A stretch of 32,053 nucleotides of DNA from Gammaproteobacteria bacterium (GTDB lineage: Bacteria > Pseudomonadota > Gammaproteobacteria > Arenicellales > JAJDZL01), in NCBI GenBank assembly GCA_022824665.1, contig JAJDZL010000022.1:1-32053 (forward strand), read 5' to 3'. The notes beneath the pieces were generated by a model. That model ran no database searches. It had not been told where the DNA came from and saw nothing but the letters and a program-made list of their open reading frames with translations. The translations under genes were made by a program, and so were the position numbers. Numbering within the stretch: the first letter of the stretch is position 1; each line of letters opens with the position of its first letter. Below, piece after piece: positions 19,624 through 31,936 of the stretch.

Positions 19624-20928
19624 TTATTTGAGCGCTGCGAAGGAACGGTCCATCGCTTCTACAATTGTTGGCACATCACTTTGTGCCAGGCACATGGGTG
19701 GTACCAGCCTCAATACGCTTCTTTCGGGACCAGCCTTGCTGCTGACGAGCCCATGGTGACGATTTTGTTCAAAGACGATCGCAGTTTCCTCGGTTGCCGG
19801 GGCTTTACTCCCCCGATCCTTGACCAGTTCCACTGCAATCATTAAACCTCTGCCCCGAACATCCCCGATATTCGGGTGGTCGTCCATGAGGCCGCGCAGG
19901 CCGTCAACGAGTGCTTCGCCAACGGCCTTTGAGTTTTGCTGCAGCTGCTCCTCCGAGATGACGCGCAGTACTGCGCGTCCCGCAGCACAGCTCATGGGAT
20001 TGGCGCCATAGGTATGAAACAGGAACTTGTCTGCCATGGGTTCTGCTATGTGTTTTCGTGCAATGACCGCACCTAGGGGATAACCGTTGGCAATGCCCTT
20101 GGCCGCGACAACGATATCCGGGACGACGTTGTGTTGTTCGAAACTCCAAAACGAATCCCCGGTTCTGCCGAACCCCGCTTGAACCTCGTCAATGATCATG
20201 ACACCGCCTGCTGCGCGAATGCGTTCGGCTGCGCCTTCAATGTAGCCGATGGGCATTGGTACGATACCGACGTAGCCCTGTACAGGCTCGATGATCATGG
20301 CAGCCAGATTTCCCGTGCTGCCGAACCGGATGGTATTGTCCAGTGCGTTCAGGTAACGCTGGATGTCATCACCAAACTCGCCGCGGTACGGATTCGGCGA
20401 CATTGCAAACTGAACATTACCTGGCAGGCCGACATCGTGTCGAAAGCCTGATATTCCGGTGATCGACTGGGCACCGTAGGTGGGCCCGTGATAGCCGCCC
20501 TGCAAAGCGACAACATCGCGGTGCCCGGTAAATGTCCGCGCCATCATCAGGGCGAGATCAATTGCTTCAGCACCGCTATTGGTGAAATGCACCACCCAGT
20601 CATATCCAGCGGGCATGGTTGCCGCTAATTCCTCGGCGAAGTGTGCGGGCACCGGGTGATAGAACATCGTTGTACAGTGAGGCAGGGCAACCGCCTGTTC
20701 ACTGGCCGCCTGGACAACATCGGGATGCGCGTGGCCGACTGAAATACACACGTTCATCGCCAGAAGGTCGATGAGGCGATTGTCTTTTTCGTCCCAAAGA
20801 TATTGTCCCGCGCCGCGTTTTAGAATGAGCGGCTTTTGGTACGGCTGGAACTTACGCTGTGAGGCAGCATAGTATTTTTCGCGTCTTGCGATAACGGCCG
20901 AAGTTGACCAGTCTGTTGCAAATTTCAT
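19624..20928 (-). CDS. Class III aminotransferase (AGXT2-like)
   Basis: The 434-residue PLP enzyme resembles alanine-glyoxylate aminotransferase 2 and omega-amino-acid transaminases. Visible are the FTNSGAEAIDLALMMAR phosphate-binding region (115-131), GGYHG (144-148), IIEPVQGYVG (212-221), IDEVQAGFGRTG (246-257) with the PLP aspartate, and AAKGIANGYPLG with Lys277. Its ATG lies 9 bp after the stop of the upstream MttB-family gene, so the two form an operon. In that setting it may transaminate glyoxylate to glycine or process the amino-acid product of demethylation. The real substrate cannot be read from sequence. Confidence 0.9.
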   Translation of the reverse strand: MKFATDWSTSAVIARREKYYAASQRKFQPYQKPLILKRGAGQYLWDEKDNRLIDLLAMNVCISVGHAHPDVVQAASEQAVALPHCTTMFYHPVPAHFAEELAATMPAGYDWVVHFTNSGAEAIDLALMMARTFTGHRDVVALQGGYHGPTYGAQSITGISGFRHDVGLPGNVQFAMSPNPYRGEFGDDIQRYLNALDNTIRFGSTGNLAAMIIEPVQGYVGIVPMPIGYIEGAAERIRAAGGVMIIDEVQAGFGRTGDSFWSFEQHNVVPDIVVAAKGIANGYPLGAVIARKHIAEPMADKFLFHTYGANPMSCAAGRAVLRVISEEQLQQNSKAVGEALVDGLRGLMDDHPNIGDVRGRGLMIAVELVKDRGSKAPATEETAIVFEQNRHHGLVSSKAGPERSVLRLVPPMCLAQSDVPTIVEAMDRSFAALK

Positions 20929-20937
20929 GGGTGTACT

Positions 20938-22488
20938 CTATGGTTTTCGAATTTCATTGAGCCGGCGCGTAATGAACGCATCGAGTGCGTCAGCTTTGTC
21001 TTGTTCAATCGCGGGTGGCTGGTATTCCTTGAGGAGTTGTTTCCAGGTCTGATTGGCGCGCTGGTGCTGCCAGGTTGAGCCTTCTGCCTGCCATTGTTCA
21101 AACGACTTATTATCTGCGACCGATGATTGAAAAAAGGCAGATTCAAAGTTTCGCTGTGTGTGTTCCGCACCGAGAAAGTGCTGACCCGGTTCCACCTCCT
21201 GAAATGCATCCCAGGCTTGAGCTTCTTCGGAAAGATCCACTTTTTTGGAAAATGCTTCCAGCATCGCACAACGGTCGGCATCCATAATCACCTTTTCGTA
21301 GCCGACGGTCAGCAGGCTCTCGAGGCAGCCGGTGGCGTGAATGATAAAGTGGGTGCCGGCCATAAATGAACCCAACAGCTGCGTTGCACTTTCGTAGGCA
21401 GCCTGGGCATCGGGCACCTTGGAAGCGGTCAGCGCGCCAACCGAATGAAACGGAACACCGAGCCGGTCAGCCAGCGAGCGGGCACACATCTGAAATTGCA
21501 TCCCCTCTGGCGTACCGAAAGTGGTAGCCCCCGACTGCAGCGAGATCGGGCTGAAGAACGTTCCAAATACGGCGGGTGCTCCCGGGCGGATGAGTTGGAT
21601 CAGACACAGGCCTGCGAGTACCTCAGCGAGCACTTGGGCAAGTGTCGCGGCGACAGAAACCGGACTCATGGCGCCGCCCAGCACAAACGGAGAAACAACA
21701 ACCGCCTGATTGGCGCGGGCGTAGACTTTCAGGGCCTCAAGCATAGTGTCATCCAGCACCAGTGGCGCGTTGGTGTTCACAACGCTGTACAGACAGCAGT
21801 TCTCGTCGACAAATTTATCGCCGAACACAATCTTTACCATTTCAACTGTGTCCGCGGCGCGTTCCCGGGCGGTAACGGCACCCATGAAAGGTTTGTCATT
21901 GAGAGTAAGGTGAGTCTTTGCCATGAACAGGTGTCGTTCCGGCACCGGGAGATCAACCGGTTCACAGACCACACCACCGGAGTGATGGACACTGTCCAGC
22001 ATATAGTGAAGGCGGGTCAGGTTTTCAAAGTCGTCACAGGTCGAATAACGCCGGCCGCGGTCCATATCGTATGCAAATGGTGGGCCAAAACTTGGGCAGA
22101 AAAGAGAGTTGTTGCCTCCGATTACCACTGATTTGGCGGGGTTGCGGGCGTGTTGAGTAAACACACTGGGTGCAGACTTGCGGATGATGTCGCGACAAAA
22201 GCCAGGTTCAAAGCGAACCCTTTCTGCGCTAATCCGGCAGCCCGCCTGTCGAAAGATGTGCAGCGTTTCCGGGTCGTCGCGAAAATCCATACCGACTTCA
22301 TCAAGAATGCGATCCGCGTTTTTTTCGATCAGGGACAATCCGTCATCGTCAAGCAGCGAGAGTCTGCCGATATTGCGCTTGATGTAAGGACTGCCACTGC
22401 CTGGCATATTGATTCGACGGCGACGATCGCGCTTTGAGTGCCGACCACCGGAACGACGACGGGATGCAGTGTCAGTTGAGGAACTCAT
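20938..22488 (-). CDS. MttB-superfamily (trimethylamine methyltransferase-like) protein, non-pyrrolysine
   Basis: The 516-residue product belongs to the MttB superfamily of quaternary or tertiary amine:corrinoid methyltransferases. Segments typical of the family are ILDEVGMDFRDDPETL, SFGPPFAYDMDRG, DKPFMGAVTARERAAD, SPFVLGGAMSPVSVAATLAQ and the C-terminal LEPGQ-like EVEPGQHFLGAEHT. The frame is continuous: there is no in-frame TAG at the pyrrolysine position of archaeal MttB, so it belongs to the non-Pyl group, of which MtgB demethylates glycine betaine. The first 27 residues are Arg/Ser-rich, a feature I recall in proteobacterial members. Start at 22488 is without a clear Shine-Dalgarno. No corrinoid protein (MtgC/MttC) or methylcorrinoid:THF transferase is present nearby. 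It heads an operon with the aminotransferase and diverges from the dehydrogenase genes. Confidence 0.9.
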   Translation of the reverse strand: MSSSTDTASRRRSGGRHSKRDRRRRINMPGSGSPYIKRNIGRLSLLDDDGLSLIEKNADRILDEVGMDFRDDPETLHIFRQAGCRISAERVRFEPGFCRDIIRKSAPSVFTQHARNPAKSVVIGGNNSLFCPSFGPPFAYDMDRGRRYSTCDDFENLTRLHYMLDSVHHSGGVVCEPVDLPVPERHLFMAKTHLTLNDKPFMGAVTARERAADTVEMVKIVFGDKFVDENCCLYSVVNTNAPLVLDDTMLEALKVYARANQAVVVSPFVLGGAMSPVSVAATLAQVLAEVLAGLCLIQLIRPGAPAVFGTFFSPISLQSGATTFGTPEGMQFQMCARSLADRLGVPFHSVGALTASKVPDAQAAYESATQLLGSFMAGTHFIIHATGCLESLLTVGYEKVIMDADRCAMLEAFSKKVDLSEEAQAWDAFQEVEPGQHFLGAEHTQRNFESAFFQSSVADNKSFEQWQAEGSTWQHQRANQTWKQLLKEYQPPAIEQDKADALDAFITRRLNEIRKP

Positions 22489-22672
22489 CTGTGCAATTTT
22501 ATATGACCGACATCGCCTGTTTAGAAACGTAGCACGAAATCAGCAAGATCTTCGGTTATCTCTGGTTGGCAATCAGCGGGGTTTCGGAAAAAGAAAATGA
22601 CAGATCGGTTGAAGCAGTCAGTCAATTAAAATTTCGTTCTTTGCATCAGCGTAAATTCTAGGTCTCCAACTG

Positions 22673-25120
22673 TTGGAACGCAACGCAAACATCGTGATCA
22701 TCGGCGGCGGCGCAATCGGGCTTTCAGTCGCTTATCACCTGGGCTTGTCGGGCGGTTCGTCGGTACATCTGTATGAAGCCAACCGGATTGGCAGTGGCAC
22801 ATCCTGGCACGCCGCGGGAATTGTCGGACCACTTCGCGCATCGTTGAATCTGACCAGAATCGCGATGTATGCAACGACCCTGTTTCCTGAGCTTGAAATT
22901 GCGACCGGTCAGTCTACGGGTTACCGACAGACCGGCGGCTTGTGGCTGGCGCGTAATCATGAACGGCTGACAGAGCTTCGCAGAATCCACGGTATGGGCC
23001 AGCGAGTTGGTCTTGGGGTTGAAATGATCAGTCCCGCCGAAGTGCGGCAGGCAGCACCGCATCTCAAAGTTGATGACCTGGTGGGGGCGCTTTGGGTCGA
23101 TGAAGATGGCCAGGTTTCACCGGTGGATTTATGTGCTGCATATGCGGCTGGCGCGAAACGTGCGGGTGTGCAAATCAGCGAGAATCAGGCCGTACAGGAA
23201 ATTCGTACTAAAGGTGGCAGACTAAACGGCATAACCTTGCTGGGCGGTGAGCGTATCCGGTGCGATGCGGTGGTTTTGTGTGCCGGGCTATGGACGCGTG
23301 CACTGGCTGCCACCGCCGGTGTCAATGTCCCGCTGCAGGGGGTTGAACATATGTATGTTGTTACTCAGCCGATCGAAGGCCTTCCTCAAACTCAACCGAT
23401 CGTGCGCGATCTGGACTCGGGAGTGTACCTCAAAGAGGACACGGGCAAAATGGTCATCGGTGGATTTGAACGTGATGCAAGGATTTGGAATGCAGAGCAC
23501 CCGGTTCGCACTGATGGTGGTTTCCTGATGTTCAACGAAGACTGGGCGCACTTTGAGCCCTTCATGCTGGCCGGAATGCATCGCATGCCCTGCCTTGAGA
23601 CGGCGGGTATACAGATGTTTATGAACGGTCCGGAGAGTTTTACGCCGGATACCAAACCATTGATTGGTGAAACACCTGAGGTGGCGGGGCTTTATGTCGC
23701 GGCCGGTTTCAATTCTGTTGGCGTCATGTCGTCGGCCGGCGTTGGACGTGAATTGGCCGAGTGGATATTGTGCGCTCAGCCACGTTTTGATATGTGGGAA
23801 GTGGACATTACCCGCGCCAGTCCCCGGTGGAATAAACCAAAGGTTCTCAGACAGCGGATGCGCGACGCGGTACATAATCAGTTCGCCATGCACTGGCCGC
23901 TCAAACAGCCTGAATCCCGTGTCGGGTTGCGGCGCTCAGCCTTGTTTGGCCAGCTCGAAAGCGCGGGCGCAGTATTCGGCTGCATGTCGCACTGGGAAGT
24001 TCCACTATGGTATGCGGAAACTCATCAAGAGCGGGCAATTCAGCACACCTATGAAGCGCAGCCGTGGTGGGAACTTGCCGCTCGAGAAGCTCAGCGCATG
24101 GCCGGCGCGGTTGCACTGGTGGATTTATCTCAGTTTTCCAAGTTTGACATTTCGGGTGACGACGCACTTCAAGGGATGCAGTTCTTGTGTGCCGGGGATA
24201 TGGATATGCGGCAGGGACGGTCAAAGTACACTGTTATGTTAAATGAGCGCGGCGGGATTGAAGCGGATGTTACGGTTGCCCGCTTTGCCGCCGATCATTT
24301 CCGGGTCGTGAGCGGTGCAAACACCCGTTTTCGTGATCGTGCGAGAATGCGTCGGGTGCTTGAACGCTTTGGTGACATTTCGATCGCCGATCAAACCAAA
24401 GATGAATGTGTGTTGGGTGTGATGGGTCCGAGGTCGCGCGATGTATTGCAGCGTGTGTTTGCGCATGCGTGGAACACGGATGCGTTTCCATTTGGACACT
24501 TTCGGCGTGGTTCGATTGGAGGCTTGCCGGTGATTGCGTTGCGCCGAAGTTATGCAGGGGAGCTTGGATTTGAACTCTATATGCGCGCGGACGATGCACC
24601 GCAGGTTTATGACATCGTCAGCGGTGCCGGCCAGAGGTTTGGCATCTCTCATTTGGGTATGCTGGCCCTTGACGGGTGCCGGCTCGAAAAGGGTTTTGGA
24701 CACTGGAGCCATGAATGGGGGAGCGACGTTACTCCGGTTGAAGCCAATATTGAGTTTGCAGTATCGAAATCCAAAACCGGTTACCTGGGATTTGACGCGA
24801 TCAAAAAACAGCGCGCGGGTGGTGTTTCGCAAAGACTCCTGCTGTTGGAAATCCTGTTGCAGACGTCTGCGCGGCCGCTGATGCTGCACGATGAGTTGGT
24901 CATGTGCGGTGATGAAATTGTCGGGCTTACCACCTCCGGTGGAGTGGGCCCCAGGACCGGACGGGTGCTGTCGTTTGCGATTGTCAAATGTGACCCGACT
25001 GAGTCATGCGAGGTGGTTTGCAGCAAGGCTTACCAGGTGAATGTGGCTGGCGAGCTTTTTGAGACTAGAGTTCTGACGGACGCGCCGTATGATCCGGATG
25101 GCATGCGGATGCGGGTATAG
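22673..25120 (+). CDS. FAD-dependent sarcosine/dimethylglycine dehydrogenase-family protein with GcvT domain (copy 1)
   Basis: The 815-residue product is a fusion. The N-terminal DAO-type FAD domain (about 5-380) has the dinucleotide fold IVIIGGGAIGLSVAYHL (7-23) and SWHAAG, whose His46 aligns with the FAD-linking histidine of mammalian DMGDH. A linker (FAO_M type) and a C-terminal aminomethyltransferase GcvT/GcvT_C domain (about 430-815) follow, with GVMGPRSRDVLQRV, SYAGELGFELYM, and LDGCRLEKGF. The family oxidises N-methyl groups of glycine derivatives and transfers the formaldehyde-level carbon to tetrahydrofolate. The frame starts with TTG at 22673, after a weak AGG; the Rossmann motif begins at once, so the start must be near. 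Four bases separate it from the second copy. Substrate (sarcosine, dimethylglycine or another) not determined. Confidence 0.9.
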   Translation: MERNANIVIIGGGAIGLSVAYHLGLSGGSSVHLYEANRIGSGTSWHAAGIVGPLRASLNLTRIAMYATTLFPELEIATGQSTGYRQTGGLWLARNHERLTELRRIHGMGQRVGLGVEMISPAEVRQAAPHLKVDDLVGALWVDEDGQVSPVDLCAAYAAGAKRAGVQISENQAVQEIRTKGGRLNGITLLGGERIRCDAVVLCAGLWTRALAATAGVNVPLQGVEHMYVVTQPIEGLPQTQPIVRDLDSGVYLKEDTGKMVIGGFERDARIWNAEHPVRTDGGFLMFNEDWAHFEPFMLAGMHRMPCLETAGIQMFMNGPESFTPDTKPLIGETPEVAGLYVAAGFNSVGVMSSAGVGRELAEWILCAQPRFDMWEVDITRASPRWNKPKVLRQRMRDAVHNQFAMHWPLKQPESRVGLRRSALFGQLESAGAVFGCMSHWEVPLWYAETHQERAIQHTYEAQPWWELAAREAQRMAGAVALVDLSQFSKFDISGDDALQGMQFLCAGDMDMRQGRSKYTVMLNERGGIEADVTVARFAADHFRVVSGANTRFRDRARMRRVLERFGDISIADQTKDECVLGVMGPRSRDVLQRVFAHAWNTDAFPFGHFRRGSIGGLPVIALRRSYAGELGFELYMRADDAPQVYDIVSGAGQRFGISHLGMLALDGCRLEKGFGHWSHEWGSDVTPVEANIEFAVSKSKTGYLGFDAIKKQRAGGVSQRLLLLEILLQTSARPLMLHDELVMCGDEIVGLTTSGGVGPRTGRVLSFAIVKCDPTESCEVVCSKAYQVNVAGELFETRVLTDAPYDPDGMRMRV

Positions 25121-25124
25121 ACAC

Positions 25125-27548
25125 ATGGCGGACACTGCAAGGATTGTGATCATTGGCGGCGGTATCATGGGGGTATCAACGCTCTACCATTTAACCAAAC
25201 TCGGCTGGTGCGATGCGGTGCTGCTGGAAAAAAGCGATCTCACGCATGGCTCGACCTGGCACGCGGCGGGGCTTTGCACGCACTTTGCACACAATGCGAC
25301 CATCATGCAGATGCGGGCCGAGAGCATTCGACTTTACAAATCTGTTTTACCCGCAGAGTCCGGTATGGCGGTTGGATTTCGGCAGACCGGTGCGATGCGG
25401 GTGACCAGGCTTCACGACCGAATGGATGAGTTTCGGCATGTACAGGGATTGGGGCGATTTGTCGGACACGAGTTTCACATTGTTGATCCGGTGCAAATTG
25501 AGAAACTCTATCCACTTGCCAAAACAGATGGTTTGATTGGCGGGATTTACGAACCGAACGACGGTAATGTCGATCCGAGCCAGGCAACACAGGCGTTTGC
25601 AGCTGTGGCACGCGGGGCCGGCGCGAGAATATATCGAAATTGTCCTGTTGTGAAACTTGAGCGGACAACAGGTGGGCAGTGGCGTGTCATTACGCCGCAG
25701 CGTGAATTTGTTTGCGAGCACATAGTTAATGCCGCCGGCACGTGGTGCCGGGAAGTTGGCGACATGATGGGTGTTGACCTTCCTGTGGTACCGGTGCTGC
25801 ATCAGTATTTTGTTACTGAAGCGATTGACGGGGTCAGGGCGCGATCTGCACCTTTGCCGATTTACCGGGATCCGGAAGAGAGCTGGTACACCCGGCAGGA
25901 ACATGATGGGCTGATACTTGGGCCTTATGAGAAAGCTGCTGAGGCCTGGTCTATAGACGGGGTGCCGCAGGATTTTGGCGCAGACCTGTTGCCGCCGGCA
26001 CTTGACCGGGTCGAAGACATTGTAGAGCTCGCAATGAGAAGGATTCCGGCACTGGCCGAGGCTGGCATCAAAAGCAATGTAAACGGACCCATTACCTTTA
26101 CCCCCGATGCCAATCCTCTAATCGGACCGGCTTTCGGGCTTGAGAATGCGTGGCTAATTACCGGCTCTTCGATGGGTGTTATGGAAGGCGGTGGCGCGGG
26201 TCAGTTTCTTGCGCAGTGGATTGTTGGCGGTGAGCCGCCGATGGACCCACTCGCGATTGATTCCAGAAGGTTCGGAGATTATGCAGATCGGGAATATCGG
26301 GTCGCCAAGGCGGTAGAGAGCTTTGGGCACCAGTTTGGGATTCACTATCCAAAGGAGGAGCGCTCTGCGGGACGTCCAGCGCTGATCTCACCATTTTATG
26401 AATCACTCGGAGACGTGGGCGCGGTGTATGGTGCAGCATTCGGTTGGGAACGGCCAAATTGGTTTCAAACCGGTGGCAGCAGGGCGGCAACGGTGGACAG
26501 CTTCAGGCGGACGAACTGGTTTGATGCGGTGCGCGAGGAATGTCTTACTGTCCACGAAAGGGTCGGTCTTTTCGACATGTCGGCAATTGCGAAGTTTGAA
26601 GTATTTGGCGCTGATGCAGAGCAGTTTCTGGAGAGCCTTGGTTCCAATGTACCGCCGCGTAGAGTTGGCGGGATCACGCTGGTTCATGCACTGACTCATT
26701 CAGGCGGCGTGCTGTCTGAATTTATGCTGCATCGCCGTGCGGAAGACCGATATTACTTGACTTGTGCTGCTGCGGCAGAGCGCACTGATTTTGAATTGCT
26801 GAAAGCGCGGGCTGCAGGACTCAGGGTTGAAGTGAAGCCGGTGACCCGGGAACGGGCAGTGCTCAGTCTCGCTGGTCCATTTGCCAAACGGCTTCTCGAT
26901 GAGGTAACCGAACATGATCTCACGCAAGCCGGATTTCCCTGGCTGACGGGGGCAGACATTGTCATTGCGGGCGAGAGAACGCTTGTACTTCGTCTTTCGT
27001 ACACGGGTGAGTCTGGATTTGAGTTGCATGTACCGCGCTCGGCGGCGAGAAAGGTATTTGCAGAGCTAGTTGAGGCCGGACTTGAGTACGGGCTTGGATA
27101 TTTTGGTGCTTATGCAGTGGATGCAATGCGACTCGAGAAAGGGTTTCGAGCCTGGGGGATGGACCTTACGAGCGAACGTACGCCGCTTGAAGCGGGATTG
27201 CGTCATTTGGTGAAATCTGAAAACAGGAAGTTTATTGGGCGGGATGCTTTACTTCGCCGGCAGGAGGCTGCCGACAGATGGCACATGAAACTAATTGAGA
27301 TTGAATCTGGTGAGATTGACCCTTTCTATTTACATCCTGTTTATCAAGATGGGTACGTGGTTGGAATTGTGACATCTGGTGCTTATGGACATCGCACCGG
27401 GAAAGCACTTGCGCTTGCTTATCTGACACAGAAGTGGAGTATTGAAGATGGACAATTTGAGGTGGAAATGCTTGGCTCAAAATATCCGGCAAAGGTGATC
27501 AAGCAACCGCCTTACGATTCAACGAATATGCTCTTGCGAACGGATTAA
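25125..27548 (+). CDS. FAD-dependent sarcosine/dimethylglycine dehydrogenase-family protein with GcvT domain (copy 2)
   Basis: This paralogue of the preceding gene has 807 residues from the ATG at 25125; the frame is open to 25089, inside the previous gene. It shows IVIIGGGIMGVSTLYHL (7-23), TWHAAG with His46, an internal FTPDANPLIGPAFGL segment, and a GcvT domain with LSLAGPFAKRLL, SYTGESGFELHVP and VDAMRLEKGFRAWG. The two copies share domain layout but differ widely in sequence, which fits two successive N-demethylations on different substrates (for example dimethylglycine then sarcosine). They form a tight operon. A complete C-terminal YDSTNMLLR end is present. Confidence 0.92.
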   Translation: MADTARIVIIGGGIMGVSTLYHLTKLGWCDAVLLEKSDLTHGSTWHAAGLCTHFAHNATIMQMRAESIRLYKSVLPAESGMAVGFRQTGAMRVTRLHDRMDEFRHVQGLGRFVGHEFHIVDPVQIEKLYPLAKTDGLIGGIYEPNDGNVDPSQATQAFAAVARGAGARIYRNCPVVKLERTTGGQWRVITPQREFVCEHIVNAAGTWCREVGDMMGVDLPVVPVLHQYFVTEAIDGVRARSAPLPIYRDPEESWYTRQEHDGLILGPYEKAAEAWSIDGVPQDFGADLLPPALDRVEDIVELAMRRIPALAEAGIKSNVNGPITFTPDANPLIGPAFGLENAWLITGSSMGVMEGGGAGQFLAQWIVGGEPPMDPLAIDSRRFGDYADREYRVAKAVESFGHQFGIHYPKEERSAGRPALISPFYESLGDVGAVYGAAFGWERPNWFQTGGSRAATVDSFRRTNWFDAVREECLTVHERVGLFDMSAIAKFEVFGADAEQFLESLGSNVPPRRVGGITLVHALTHSGGVLSEFMLHRRAEDRYYLTCAAAAERTDFELLKARAAGLRVEVKPVTRERAVLSLAGPFAKRLLDEVTEHDLTQAGFPWLTGADIVIAGERTLVLRLSYTGESGFELHVPRSAARKVFAELVEAGLEYGLGYFGAYAVDAMRLEKGFRAWGMDLTSERTPLEAGLRHLVKSENRKFIGRDALLRRQEAADRWHMKLIEIESGEIDPFYLHPVYQDGYVVGIVTSGAYGHRTGKALALAYLTQKWSIEDGQFEVEMLGSKYPAKVIKQPPYDSTNMLLRTD

Positions 27549-27737
27549 TGGTGCCACTGTTGATTCTGAGAAAGTTCAATGAAACACAAGAAGGCTCGGT
27601 CTGTTAGGTACGCATTGAAGTAGAACGCGGAATTGAATGATTCAGGCGATAAGTGTCTACCAGAAGTGACGCTACGTCGATTCTCAGAGACTTCGTGGTA
27701 AAACCGAACTTAGTCAATTCAAGACAATTTGATTTGC

Positions 27738-28247
27738 ATGAACCCAAGGTCATTTTCCAAGCCACAGCCAGCTGAACCTCTTCCAGAGGAGGTGTGGTTA
27801 GAGCAAACAGATCGTTCTGACGCCGGCCGTGAACCGTTCTTTTACGGAAGGGATGCTGAGTATGATGTATTCCGATCTGCTGTTGAAAGTCTCGGATAAG
27901 GGATTGTCGGCGGCGGCACGATGATCTTCCAGGGTGCACCAGGTGCTGGAAAAACTGCATTCATGCTGGAATGTATGGAGGCAGTCAGAAGTCACTCCAC
28001 ACCAGATGATCCCTGGCTAGCAGTCTCCATTCGTCCGGAAACCCTGAAGTCTGCTTTACAGACGGTCAGCGTCATTGTGCAGGCAGCCAATACAGAGAGC
28101 GATTGTCGCGCTGCAGGTGGTCTAACGTCGGGGACAGGCTCATCACCGCTCGGCACTAACATTACGACTGGATCAATCAATCGGGGCTGGTCAAAAGCTC
28201 AAGTACGCCCGGTCCGTCGCCGCTCCCTTGAAAAGACCCTCGGCTAA
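27738..28247 (+). pseudogene. Broken P-loop (AAA-type) ATPase gene
   Basis: From an ATG at 27738 the frame reads a plausible ATPase N-terminus ending in FFYGRDAEYDVFRSAVESLG, then hits TAA at 27897-27899. It continues in the same frame with GIVGGGTMIFQGAPGAGKTAFMLECMEAV, quoted in two parts elsewhere: a glycine-rich lead and Walker A GAPGAGKT. Walker A follows the FYGRD-type opening of AAA/ORC-like ATPases at the usual distance, so the stop has split one gene. After about residue 125 the sequence (from NTESD onward) no longer resembles an ATPase; no Walker B is seen, suggesting a further frameshift or truncation. It ends 4 bases into the convergent Rieske gene. Likely a decayed accessory gene. 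Confidence 0.7.
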
Positions 28248-29425
28248 ATATCTTCAACCGGCAGCAATTCGCGGCCAAGTCCTAGCCTGTAGGCATTATG
28301 AATGTGATGCAATGAAGGTTCGTTCCGCCCAAACACAATCTCGGGGTGAGTTCCGCGCTCGGCGTTTACCTGGATGTCCTCCATCATCGGGTAGTCCTCT
28401 TGTGCGACGACATCCCTGACTCTCTCAAGTCCATGTTCATACGCCTTTGCAGAATCTGTGAAGTGTTTTTCGACGTTGGGATCAACGTACCACGTGTGAA
28501 TCGTCCGGCACTTTGAAGGTGAGCCTCCGAGAGGGAAAATTCGAAAAAAATCCACGCCCATCGCACCCACCGCCATGATGGCGTTCGGGTAAAGGAAATA
28601 GGTAGTGGAGGTTATCTGCTTGTAAGGCCAATGGGCCAGGTCCGGTATCATCATCCGCATCAGATTGAATCTCTGATTGGCGGCGACCATGCGCAGGTTC
28701 TTTCCGAAGCCGTCGAAGGTCTGTAAGTCCCCCATTACCTCCTGAGCGGCGGTTTCTGCGTGGATCACGTTGACGTGATAAAGCTCACCGAAGGTATCGA
28801 TGCCCAATTTCCAGTTCATCTGCGCATCGATGACTTGCGTGCCGGCATGAGGATGACTCGATAACTTCCAGTGAACCAGGTCGTCCTGAAGTCCTGCCAC
28901 AGACTCGTCCTCGTCAACTGGGTCGCCTTGAGTCGGCCGTACCCACAAGGTGCCGTACAGTTCAGCCGAAGGTAATGCGATCAGCGGCAGATCCATACTC
29001 GACTGGTTCGAAAATCGACCGCTCTTGTTGACCTTCAGCAATTTGCCGTCATTTCCATACGTCCATGCGTGGTAAGGACATGTAAATCGCTTTCTGGAAC
29101 CGCGTCCTTCGGGCACTACTTTGCCCCCGCGATGTCTGCAGACGTTCGCATATGCTCTAAATCGTCCTTCGCCATCACGAACCATAAGTATCGGGATGCC
29201 TGTTTCATTGTCCGACCAGTACGTGTTGGGCTCGGGCAGCTCGGACGAGAGACCCATGCACAAGGGTGTGTTCCGGAAAAACACATCCTGCTCTTGCGCC
29301 AAGAGTTGCGGGCACGCGAAATCCGACATCGGTACACGCATGACGCCGCCCGCATCGGCAGTCGTATCGTTGGCGATGTGCCCGGCGAGTTCATTTAATA
29401 TGCGAAGTCGTTCGGATTTGTCCAT
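28244..29425 (-). CDS. Rieske non-heme iron oxygenase alpha subunit
   Basis: The 393-residue product has an N-terminal Rieske 2Fe-2S domain with CRH (Cys96, His98) and CPYH (Cys116, His119), and a catalytic SRPBCC-type domain with the mononuclear iron signature NWKLGIDTFGELYHVNVIH (His217 and His222). The third ligand is probably the Asp in YPMMEDIQ near 350. The family includes ring-hydroxylating dioxygenases and the quaternary-amine oxygenases (carnitine monooxygenase CntA, stachydrine and betaine demethylases). The position beside methylamine-type dehydrogenases favours the latter group. A reductase is required; none lies in the window. The ATG at 29425 is followed upstream by a gene-poor stretch. 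Confidence 0.9.
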   Translation of the reverse strand: MDKSERLRILNELAGHIANDTTADAGGVMRVPMSDFACPQLLAQEQDVFFRNTPLCMGLSSELPEPNTYWSDNETGIPILMVRDGEGRFRAYANVCRHRGGKVVPEGRGSRKRFTCPYHAWTYGNDGKLLKVNKSGRFSNQSSMDLPLIALPSAELYGTLWVRPTQGDPVDEDESVAGLQDDLVHWKLSSHPHAGTQVIDAQMNWKLGIDTFGELYHVNVIHAETAAQEVMGDLQTFDGFGKNLRMVAANQRFNLMRMMIPDLAHWPYKQITSTTYFLYPNAIMAVGAMGVDFFRIFPLGGSPSKCRTIHTWYVDPNVEKHFTDSAKAYEHGLERVRDVVAQEDYPMMEDIQVNAERGTHPEIVFGRNEPSLHHIHNAYRLGLGRELLPVEDI

Positions 29426-29779: not shown

Positions 29780-29968
29780 ATGAACCTGTCAGAGTTGGTC
29801 ATTGAAACCGTCAGGCGGGCAGACGAGGCGAGATTCCTTGCACTGATGCGCGAGCATCACTATCTTGGCGTACCGCACAAGATTGGCGAAAGCGCATTCT
29901 ATGCGGCTGTCTATGGGCGTAAAAAACATATGAACCATGGGCCAATTCAACTATTGCTAAAATTCTGA
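29780..29968 (+). pseudogene. Truncated DUF4338 (DruA-like) fragment
   Basis: The 62-residue frame starts with ATG after a GGTGAG ribosome binding site. Its first 48 residues match the opening of DUF4338 proteins as I recall them: RFLALMREHHYLG, then KIGESAFYAAVYG, where intact members continue with a WLALL-type strand. Here that continuation is replaced by RKKHMNHGPIQ and a stop, and no other frame resumes it. DUF4338 covers DruA of the Druantia defence system and many proteins linked to transposable elements. An intact member is several hundred residues long, so this is a remnant. The other Druantia genes are absent. Confidence 0.55.
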
Positions 29969-30201
29969 CGCACACCCCCATGCATATCTGAGATCTGGGA
30001 AGAAATATTGAAATAGTATTTGACCACTTTGAGAAAACCTGAGTAGTTTGTTGTCTGTCTGTATCACCTCAATTCTGTCTTTGAATTTTTCCTCATCTAT
30101 CGCTTTACTCAAATTATTGGAATTTCTCCTTTTGACTTGACAGCAAAATTGTTTGAAGAAGATCGTCAAAAAGGCAAAGAAATTAGCGCAGAAATTCAAA
30201 A

Positions 30202-30307: not shown

Positions 30308-31417
30308 ATGGCTACTAACCAACTCATAGGAAAAAGATTCAAGGCGTGGCGAATGGAGCACGGACTGTCACAGGATAAACTTGCCCAGTTGCTTGGATTT
30401 AAGGACCGACAAACTGTATCGGCGATTGAGACTGGTCTGCGACGCGTGAGTGCCGAAGAACTGATACTTGCGGTTCAGAAGTTAAATGAGCCGCTTGAAT
30501 ATTTTACCGACCCATTTCGACTTGTTGGAGAAGGTGATTTTTCGTGGCGACAAACTGGTGTCAGGGACAGTCTGCTCAAGAAGTCTCAAAGTGAGGCGGG
30601 CCGTTGGATTGCTGCGTATCGCAGTTTAGCTCCAATGGCGGGGCTCGAGAAACAATACCTTCACCGACACCTGCGGCTGACTCGGAATTCTCGATATGAA
30701 GATGCAATTGCAGCTGGTGAGCGTTTTGTAACTGAGTTCGGTCTTGGCGAAACGCCAGCAACGTGTTTAGTTGATACTTTGGAAAACAAGTTGGGTATCT
30801 TGGTTTTGATGGTCGATTTTGATCATGGAATTTCTGGAGCGGCTTGTAGGCTTTGCGAGTTTGACGTGGTGTTGATTGCACGTCACGAGACAGAGGGTCG
30901 TCGCAATTTCAATCTCGCGCACGAATTGTTTCATATACTCACTTGGAAAACCATGCCACCGGCATATTCAGAAGAGGCACGAGGAACTGATGGGAATCGT
31001 GTAGAGCAACTAGCAGATAACTTTGCAGCTGCTGTGCTAATGCCTGCAGCGACTTTGCGTCGGTACGGTAATTGGTCAAATCTGTCTGAGAAAGACTTGA
31101 TATCGCGGCTCAACACAGTAGCAGATGACTTTCATGTGACATCTTCAGCACTTCGTTGGCGTTTGGTCGCACTGAAAGAATTGACACAGTCTGTGGCGCG
31201 TTCGCTACCTGAAGATGCTTTGCGCAATAACGGTTGGGAGAGAATCTCACACGAGAAACCCGCTTTGTTCTCAAAGTCCTTTATGCAAGTTCTGAGATTG
31301 GCAATCGAACAGGGGTTGGTTTCGACACGACACGTTGCGGGACTCCTTGGAGTAACTGTAGAAGATTTGGAAGACTTGTTCACAGCACACAGAATTGAAC
31401 CTCCCATACAATTATGA
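30308..31417 (+). CDS. XRE-family regulator with ImmA/IrrE-type metalloprotease domain
   Basis: The 369-residue product has an N-terminal helix-turn-helix (about 7-62; LSQDKLAQLLGFKDRQTVSAIETG), and an ImmA/IrrE peptidase domain (about 150-250) with the zinc motif HELFH (His205, Glu206, His209) followed by EQLADNFAAAVLMP carrying the likely third ligand. The C-terminal part (SFMQVLRLAIEQGLVSTRHVAGLLGVTVEDLEDLF) looks like a second helical segment found in such antitoxins. The ATG is preceded by GAGCGGA. It sits 6 bp before a PIN-domain gene, the layout of COG2856-type antitoxin with a toxin. It probably represses its own promoter through the inverted repeat at 30224-30255. Confidence 0.88.
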   Translation: MATNQLIGKRFKAWRMEHGLSQDKLAQLLGFKDRQTVSAIETGLRRVSAEELILAVQKLNEPLEYFTDPFRLVGEGDFSWRQTGVRDSLLKKSQSEAGRWIAAYRSLAPMAGLEKQYLHRHLRLTRNSRYEDAIAAGERFVTEFGLGETPATCLVDTLENKLGILVLMVDFDHGISGAACRLCEFDVVLIARHETEGRRNFNLAHELFHILTWKTMPPAYSEEARGTDGNRVEQLADNFAAAVLMPAATLRRYGNWSNLSEKDLISRLNTVADDFHVTSSALRWRLVALKELTQSVARSLPEDALRNNGWERISHEKPALFSKSFMQVLRLAIEQGLVSTRHVAGLLGVTVEDLEDLFTAHRIEPPIQL

Positions 31418-31423
31418 GTCGCT

Positions 31424-31936
31424 ATGATGCGACATCTTGGTCCTGTGCTAGTAGATACAAATGTAATCCTAGAATGTCATAGGGTAGGTTTATGGCGTGC
31501 ATTTGTTGGTGGATACCAAGTCGAAACGGTCGAGGAGTGTGTGACCGAAACTCAAACCGGGTTTCAAAGACGACGCGAGCATCAGCAGATTGACGAGCAG
31601 AAATTGCGCGCAAAGTTGACAGAGGTCCGTCCAGTAACGGAACAAGAGCGTGCTGAGTTGTCCGTGATGGTTCCCGACATTATCCTCGATAAAGGTGAGG
31701 TGTCGCTTTGGGCTCACGCAGCGAGTCGGGATGACGCTTGAATTTTGTGCGGACCAGATAAAGCAAGCATTCGATTTGGAATTCGGTTAGGATTTCAGGA
31801 ACGGTTGGTATCACTGGAACAGCTTCTAAGTGTAGTGGCTTATCGACGAAAGATAACGTTAAAGTCAGCATATACAACAAATTGGCATGAAATGACCGTT
31901 GGTCAGCTCCTCTTGGTTGAGGCAAATAACCGATAG
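31424..31936 (+). pseudogene. PIN-domain toxin with in-frame TGA
   Basis: The frame opens with MMRHLGPVLVDTNVILECHR (Asp11, first acidic residue of the PIN nuclease site), then has the VEECVTET glutamate and DKGEVSLWAHAASRDDA, which are the remaining acidic positions. A TGA at 31739-31741 (codon 106) then interrupts it. The same frame continues for 64 more sense codons with ILCGPDKASIRFGIRLGFQE and a C-terminal YTTNWHEMTVGQLLLVE, which fits the rest of the family. As I recall, relatives read DAW-LCGPD at this point, so TGA replaces a tryptophan codon TGG by one base change. A truncated 105-residue product would lack the end of the fold. Preceded at 6 bp by the XRE/ImmA gene, probably its antitoxin. 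A sequencing error is also possible. Confidence 0.8.

What the first reader, a model, noticed from the sequence alone, without database searches (positions are those of the whole stretch)
19624..29425. Island for demethylation of an N-methylated compound, with unusual partner set
An MttB-family methyltransferase, an AGXT2-like aminotransferase, two FAD/GcvT dehydrogenases and a Rieske oxygenase lie together. This suggests stepwise removal of methyl groups from a betaine-type substrate: oxygenase or methyltransferase first, dehydrogenases next, aminotransferase last. Oxygen-dependent and corrinoid-dependent first steps are both present, which is unusual.
Basis: partly seen in the sequence, partly recalled or inferred. 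Interest (0 to 1): 0.65.

Follow-up and report, generated by a model that had tools for sequence, protein, structure and literature searches.

The report
Betaine demethylation cluster with altered methyltransferase
Four neighbouring genes form a conserved bacterial assembly line that probably strips all three methyl groups from a betaine other than the common glycine betaine and then removes its nitrogen, while the oxygen-using gene beside them is most likely an unrelated neighbour.

Summary
All five genes exist at the stated coordinates. Four of them (class III aminotransferase AT3, MttB-type methyltransferase, and two dimethylglycine-dehydrogenase-like FAD/GcvT proteins) are a real conserved module. 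The same four genes recur in four congeners and in ten other loci, including alphaproteobacteria; several of these also carry a LysR regulator and a betaine-type ABC importer.

The MttB proteins of the module form one clade (SH-aLRT 99.9), sister to the glycine-betaine (MtgB) type. They carry a clade-wide Arg-to-His change (window H348) at the residue that published docking assigns to the glycine-betaine carboxylate: His in 15/15 module proteins, Arg in the 24/24 sister-clade proteins counted. The genome also encodes corrinoid protein, pterin methyltransferase and reductive activase, and has a separate MtgB-type gene.

Best reading: corrinoid-dependent first demethylation of a betaine other than glycine betaine, two folate-linked oxidative demethylations, then transamination of the primary amine. 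The substrate is inferred, not shown.

The Rieske gene does not belong: absent from all congeners searched, not next to the module elsewhere, convergent in orientation, beyond a broken ATPase remnant, and outside the CntA/YeaW group. The 'unusual' oxygenase-plus-corrinoid pairing is not supported as a pathway.

The parts
19624..20928 (-). AT3: class III aminotransferase, AGXT2-like; proposed last step (transamination of the fully demethylated primary amine)
   Evidence: Pfam Aminotran_3 1.3e-84; best PDB match human ETNPPL, 282 bits; Arg at the position where both phospho-lyases have Lys, in 15/15 module-type aminotransferases of the alignment, and AKG rather than GKP around the PLP lysine
20938..22488 (-). 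MttB: quaternary amine:corrinoid methyltransferase, non-pyrrolysine, Arg-to-His subclade (H348); proposed first demethylation; 9 bp upstream of AT3, same strand
   Evidence: Pfam MTTB 7.5e-200; 4yyc 573 bits, MtgB 2qne/9yce about 365 bits, TMA MttB about 109 bits; clade and residues
22489..22672 (.). Intergenic region between the divergent AT3-MttB and dehydrogenase gene pairs; likely holds both promoters
   Evidence: Sequence read; not tested for function
22673..25120 (+). DMGDH1: FAD/GcvT fusion dehydrogenase, proposed demethylation step linked to tetrahydrofolate
   Evidence: Pfam DAO, FAO_M, GCV_T, GCV_T_C; rat DMGDH 390 bits; covalent-FAD motif WHAAG and folate-domain acidic residue kept
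25125..27548 (+). DMGDH2: second FAD/GcvT fusion dehydrogenase, closer to mitochondrial DMGDH (ORF opens at 25089)
   Evidence: Pfam; rat DMGDH 649 bits; motifs kept
27795..28103 (+). Broken ATPase remnant (one in-frame stop) between the module and the Rieske gene; not part of the module
   Evidence: tblastn 69% to an ATPase on contig C108 of the same genome
28244..29425 (-). Rieske oxygenase alpha subunit; judged a bystander, not part of the module
   Evidence: Pfam Rieske and Ring_hydroxyl_A; absent from congeners; tree

Best explanation
Genes 19624-27548 encode a catabolic module for a trimethylammonium compound other than glycine betaine, most likely an omega-amino-acid betaine such as beta-alanine betaine, with gamma-butyrobetaine, taurine betaine or delta-valerobetaine as alternatives. 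Step 1: MttB transfers one methyl group to a corrinoid protein encoded elsewhere in the genome; a pterin methyltransferase passes it to tetrahydrofolate and a RACo-type protein re-reduces the cobalamin. Steps 2 and 3: the two FAD/GcvT proteins oxidatively remove the remaining two methyl groups, delivering methylene-tetrahydrofolate. Step 4: AT3 transaminates the resulting primary amine to a semialdehyde. Shown by sequence: the enzyme families, the conserved linkage, the distinct MttB clade with its fixed Arg-to-His change, and the presence of the corrinoid partners. Inferred: the substrate, the order of the two dehydrogenases, and that AT3 acts last as a transaminase.
For: Families. All four genes recur together in 14 further loci: four congeners (L062, L063, L064, L115), L065, L066, L109, L123, L140, L142 as a one-strand operon, L143-L145 and Mesorhizobium pB1-1-8, L152. 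A LysR regulator at 47-94% identity to the Mesorhizobium one lies in six of the other loci, and a betaine-type ABC importer in four of the 15. The 14 module MttBs of the tree are one side of one branch, SH-aLRT 99.9. H348 is in 15/15 module MttBs while Arg is in 24/24 of the sister clade counted (including 4yyc) and in D. hafniense MtgB; this is R309, which PMC6855144 proposes to position the carboxylate of glycine betaine; the cation-binding Tyr94 stays aromatic (Phe or Trp), and N199 and H345 are invariant. Named sister-clade members sit with MtgC, MtgD, MetF, RACo and bmt, or with betA and betB, so the sister clade is best read as the glycine-betaine type. The genome encodes two sets of corrinoid protein, pterin-binding protein and RACo and a separate sister-clade MttB on C230. 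Both dehydrogenases keep the flavin and folate motifs. AT3 carries the Arg of class III transaminases where phospho-lyases have Lys.
Against: No substrate evidence of any kind. The role of R309 comes from docking into an apo structure, not from mutagenesis. The corrinoid partners are on other contigs of a fragmented, 87% complete MAG. AT3's best solved relative is a phospho-lyase and similarity alone does not separate it from AGXT2; the AGXT2 sequence was recalled from memory. No semialdehyde dehydrogenase is conserved next to the module, and the window copy has no adjacent LysR gene or importer.
Confidence: 0.66

Rival explanations
1. An alternative glycine betaine pathway: MttB makes dimethylglycine, the two dehydrogenases make sarcosine and then glycine, and AT3 interconverts glycine and glyoxylate (AGXT2-like).
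For: The tandem dehydrogenases match a dimethylglycine plus sarcosine dehydrogenase pair; DMGDH2 scores 649 bits to mitochondrial DMGDH; the adjacent importers in L066 and L152 are of the glycine betaine/choline type.
Against: The Arg proposed to position the carboxylate is replaced by His in the whole clade; the genome already has a sister-clade MtgB-type MttB on C230; glycine needs no aminotransferase to be used.
Confidence: 0.15
2. A phosphocholine, choline-derived or phosphonate-like substrate: demethylation to phosphoethanolamine (or 2-aminoethylphosphonate), with AT3 acting as a phospho-lyase or ammonia-lyase.
For: Best PDB match of AT3 is ethanolamine-phosphate phospho-lyase, 282 bits; MttB relatives work in a choline demethylation pathway with a choline kinase (PMC12155760).
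Against: AT3 and all its module-type orthologues carry Arg, not the Lys of both solved phospho-lyases, and an AKG, not GKP, motif at the PLP lysine; no kinase or phosphonate gene was seen beside the module in the loci annotated.
Confidence: 0.07
3. One reading: the Rieske oxygenase is part of the same pathway and gives an oxygen-dependent first demethylation beside the corrinoid-dependent one.
For: Adjacency in the window; bridging Glu in place of Asp; weak similarity to CntA (74 bits).
Against: No hit at E <= 1e-50 in five congeners and no close homologue beside the module in the 14 other loci read; opposite strand to the dehydrogenases, beyond an ATPase remnant with a stop; lower codon-model score per codon than the other large genes; tree places it with SRPBCC-type proteins, apart from CntA/YeaW; the bridging Glu is in nearly all proteins compared and the ECYHC motif of CntA, YeaW and Stc2 is absent.
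Confidence: 0.05

Closest known systems
MtgBCD glycine betaine demethylation of aerobic marine bacteria (Ruegeria pomeroyi; PMC12478193)
   Same: MttB-family methyltransferase in an aerobic proteobacterium; corrinoid protein, pterin methyltransferase and RACo-type activase in the same genome; dehydrogenases for later methyl groups
   Different: The window MttB lies in a separate clade with Arg309 replaced by His; it is linked to an AGXT2-like aminotransferase and elsewhere to a LysR gene, not to mtgC/mtgD
Sinorhizobium meliloti MttB-family protein (PDB 4yyc; 100% identical to the pSymB protein of strain Ak57 over the stretch read)
   Same: Closest solved relative, about 52% identical, same family
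   Different: Arg at the H348 position; its gene lies with corrinoid protein, pterin methyltransferase, MetF, RACo and bmt
Mitochondrial dimethylglycine dehydrogenase and related DAO+GcvT fusions
   Same: Full domain architecture, WHAAG covalent-FAD motif and folate-domain acidic residue kept in both proteins
   Different: Two divergent paralogues occur together in every module; their substrates are unknown
AGXT2 / ethanolamine-phosphate phospho-lyase branch of class III aminotransferases
   Same: About 38% identity to each over most of the length
   Different: Arg at the transaminase position, unlike the phospho-lyases; found with MttB and two dehydrogenases at every locus read except L141
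Eubacterium limosum MttB-superfamily demethylases (e.g. MtyB, gamma-butyrobetaine; PMC8604678)
   Same: Non-pyrrolysine MttB proteins acting on quaternary amines other than glycine betaine

Membership tests
MttB superfamily (PF06253) | Full-length MTTB domain | tested here: met
   E 7.5e-200, positions 1-499 of 500
MttB superfamily (PF06253) | Transfers a methyl group from a quaternary amine to a corrinoid protein | not testable with these tools
   Partners present in the genome; activity not measurable here
Trimethylamine methyltransferase (pyrrolysine MttB) | In-frame amber codon read as pyrrolysine | tested here: not met
   Continuous ORF without internal stop; about 109 bits to TMA MttB against about 365 to MtgB
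Glycine betaine:corrinoid methyltransferase (MtgB) | Proposed glycine-betaine pocket Y94, N199, R309, H345 (PMC6855144, docking) | tested here: not met
   F134, N238, H348, H384; the Arg is replaced by His in 15/15 clade members
Glycine betaine:corrinoid methyltransferase (MtgB) | Groups with characterised or context-supported MtgB proteins | tested here: not met
   Sister clade, SH-aLRT 99.9 for the module clade
MtgBCD-type system (works like) | Corrinoid protein, pterin-binding methyltransferase and RACo-type activase in the genome | tested here: met
   Contigs C240 and C108
DAO-GcvT demethylating dehydrogenases (DMGDH-like) | DAO + FAO_M + GCV_T + GCV_T_C architecture, WHAAG motif, folate-domain acid | tested here: met
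Class III phospho-lyase (ETNPPL, 5g4i) | Lys in place of the transaminase Arg, GKPMGNG around the PLP lysine | tested here: not met
   Arg and AKGIANG in AT3; Arg in all 15 module-type aminotransferases
AGXT2-like aminotransferase | Transaminase activity on omega- or beta-amino acids | not testable with these tools
   Only sequence similarity; the AGXT2 sequence was recalled from memory
Quaternary-ammonium Rieske oxygenases (CntA/YeaW, Stc2) | Groups with CntA/YeaW or Stc2 and carries ECYHC | tested here: not met
   Different clade, 100/98 support; ELYHV in place of ECYHC; the place of Stc2 itself is unsure (long branch)

The most novel reading that the evidence does not exclude
A distinct MttB subfamily, marked by His in place of the Arg proposed to hold the glycine betaine carboxylate, starts an aerobic corrinoid- and folate-dependent pathway that fully demethylates and deaminates a betaine for which no complete bacterial demethylation route is known to me, encoded in some bacteria as one portable module of an importer, a LysR regulator, MttB, two dehydrogenases and an aminotransferase.
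Probability: 0.5. Interest if true: 0.65.

Novelty: new variant of a known kind. Interest (0 to 1): 0.5.

Why it matters
Most non-pyrrolysine MttB proteins have no assigned substrate. A clade with a fixed pocket change, tied to a constant set of partner enzymes, makes the substrate question directly testable and would extend corrinoid-dependent demethylation in aerobic bacteria beyond glycine betaine. Ten near-complete MttB copies in one MAG suggest that such specialisation matters in this group.

Tried and rejected
Rieske as a CntA- or stachydrine-type oxygenase: rejected on tree, motif and linkage. Bridging Glu of the Rieske as evidence for quaternary amines: rejected, nearly all Rieske proteins compared have it. 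NCBIfam GbcA score as a guide to Rieske type: uninformative, every Rieske protein with a complete domain hits it best or nearly so, far below the cut-off. AT3 as phospho-lyase: considered because of the best PDB hit, set aside on the Arg/Lys position. Neighbour c11 in congeners as a pathway gene: it is an ordinary aroE. Aldehyde dehydrogenases near L142 and L145 as substrate clues: not conserved between loci. Paper searches for this gene set found none in the held library, which is no proof of absence. No structure prediction was run: homology was not in doubt and pocket geometry could not be read from the output.

Full report
What is there. AT3 and MttB lie on the minus strand 9 bp apart; the two FAD/GcvT genes lie divergently on the plus strand and overlap as ORFs (25089 to 25120), though the likelier start of the second is 25125. 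The window is contig C46 of a 2.6 Mb MAG, 87% complete, in 263 contigs; named relatives of the locus are gammaproteobacterial and Arenicellales MAGs.

A conserved four-gene module. Orthologues of the window MttB in four congeners (L062, L063, L064, L115) show the same arrangement of all four genes. A fifth congener, G047, has only a 54% MttB match. The same four genes lie together in L065 and L066 (records titled Alphaproteobacteria and Rhodobacteraceae), in L109 and L123 from other families of the order, and in loci found through the aminotransferase. That search covered samples of 369 class and 398 phylum genomes and gave six genomes besides our own; in five of the six (L140, L142, L143, L144, L145) MttB and both dehydrogenases are beside it, in L142 as a one-strand operon; in L141, a contig of 11.5 kb, the aminotransferase stands without them. 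Mesorhizobium sp. B1-1-8 plasmid pB1-1-8 carries the four genes with a LysR regulator and a three-gene betaine ABC importer. The LysR protein has relatives of 47-94% identity in L142, L143, L144, L145, L065 and L066; an importer of this type is next to the module in L066, L143, L144 and L152. Each module has one dehydrogenase of each of two types.

The MttB clade. In a tree of 48 MttB proteins, built by the quick method, the 14 module proteins form one side of a branch with SH-aLRT 99.9, next to a group with S. meliloti 4yyc and the second MttB of this genome on C230. PMC6855144 docked glycine betaine into the D. hafniense MtgB structure and proposed Y94, N199, R309 and H345 as contacts, with R309 positioning the carboxylate. 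With a numbering offset that reproduces all the named letters, R309 is Arg in 24/24 sister-clade proteins counted, including 4yyc, and His (window H348) in 14/14 module proteins; the Mesorhizobium protein makes it 15/15, and the named Paracoccus, S. meliloti and Azoarcus proteins have Arg. The Gly two positions on is Val. Y94 becomes Phe or Trp; N199 and H345 are kept. Among the nine other full-length MttB paralogues of this genome, seven have Arg here and the two most divergent have Trp or Gly; none has His. The S. meliloti Ak57 pSymB protein is 100% identical to the 4yyc sequence read here, and its gene sits with corrinoid protein, pterin methyltransferase, MetF, DUF1638, RACo and bmt; two Paracoccus loci are similar and the Azoarcus gene lies near betA and betB. 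That context, with PMC12478193, supports the sister clade as glycine-betaine type. The role of R309 itself is a docking result, not a mutagenesis result.

Partners. MttB needs a corrinoid protein. The genome has three proteins with a B12-binding_2 match; two lie with a pterin-binding protein and a RACo-type activase, on C240 and C108. None is in the window. Both dehydrogenases keep the covalent-FAD motif and the acidic residue of the folate domain in all eight modules aligned.

The aminotransferase. AT3 is 38% identical to ETNPPL and to a recalled AGXT2 sequence (the recalled sequence is a lead only). At the position where both solved phospho-lyases have Lys, AT3 and the other 14 module-type orthologues aligned have Arg, which in class III transaminases of known structure binds the substrate carboxylate (established knowledge, not tested here), and the PLP-lysine motif is AKG rather than GKP. 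I take it as a transaminase for a terminal amine. If the end product were glycine, a transaminase would not be needed; this, with the His at the R309 position, is why I favour a longer betaine. The choice among beta-alanine betaine, gamma-butyrobetaine, taurine betaine and delta-valerobetaine is not decided by any evidence here.

The Rieske gene. At E <= 1e-50 none of five congeners has it; six other genomes of the order have matches of 31-35%. At E <= 1e-70 a 398-genome phylum sample gave two more, both at 36%. In the 14 other module loci read, no close homologue lies beside the module; L109 has a Rieske gene of another type (26% identity) about 7 kb away. It is on the opposite strand to the dehydrogenases and beyond an ATPase remnant with a stop (27795-28103, 69% identical to an ATPase on C108). 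In congeners the gene after DMGDH2 is aroE, so the flank is rearranged here. Its codon-model score is about 0.10 bits per codon, against 0.20-0.26 for the four module genes and about 0.22-0.26 for bioA and ubiA (from; MttB and the two dehydrogenases were in the training set, AT3, bioA and ubiA were not); base composition is not unusual. A 23-protein tree puts it in a clade (100/98) with order relatives, an alphaproteobacterial-group protein and three Novosphingobium SRPBCC-type proteins, while CntA, YeaW and this genome's own C113 Rieske group elsewhere (98/97); the place of Stc2 is unsure because of its long branch. CntA, YeaW and Stc2 share ECYHC; the window protein has ELYHV. What it acts on is unknown.

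Verdict. The novel element is the MttB subclade with its fixed Arg-to-His change inside a constant module: a new variant of the known MtgB-type demethylation systems. Confidence is 0.66 for the mechanism as stated; the exact substrate is open.

Noticed in passing
own genome, contigs C230, C3, C241, C46, C150, C20, C43, C176 (two), C145: Ten near-complete MttB genes plus one fragment in one MAG of 2.6 Mb; five of them, besides the window's, lie next to a DAO/GcvT dehydrogenase gene.
   Followed up: partly
L050 (G000:C230:1-7133) and L110, L111, L116, L117: A second MttB locus: an aminotransferase of another type without the conserved Arg, MttB of the sister clade, an AceK-like gene and a dehydrogenase; in several relatives ETF beta and alpha genes follow.
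   Followed up: partly
L116:5540-7330 and L117:15939-17750: Rieske oxygenase genes whose ORF carries an N-terminal stretch that reads like a TetR regulator, a few kilobases from the second type of MttB locus; a truncated relative lies on own contig C163.
   Followed up: no
L055:473-1618 (G000:C113): A CntA/YeaW-side Rieske oxygenase elsewhere in this genome: 38-42% to CntA and YeaW, about 59% to Roseobacter-group proteins, one of them next to betC.
   Followed up: partly
L118:9100-12003: MttB immediately followed by a Rieske gene of another type, with a RACo gene just upstream.
   Followed up: no
window 30308-31741: An HTH + IrrE-type protein (Peptidase_M78) followed by a short ORF that starts like a PIN-type nuclease; resembles a toxin-antitoxin or phage-repressor pair.
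   Followed up: no
window 29780-29970: A short stretch that reads like part of a broken transposase-type gene; with the ATPase remnant it suggests a rearranged flank.
   Followed up: no
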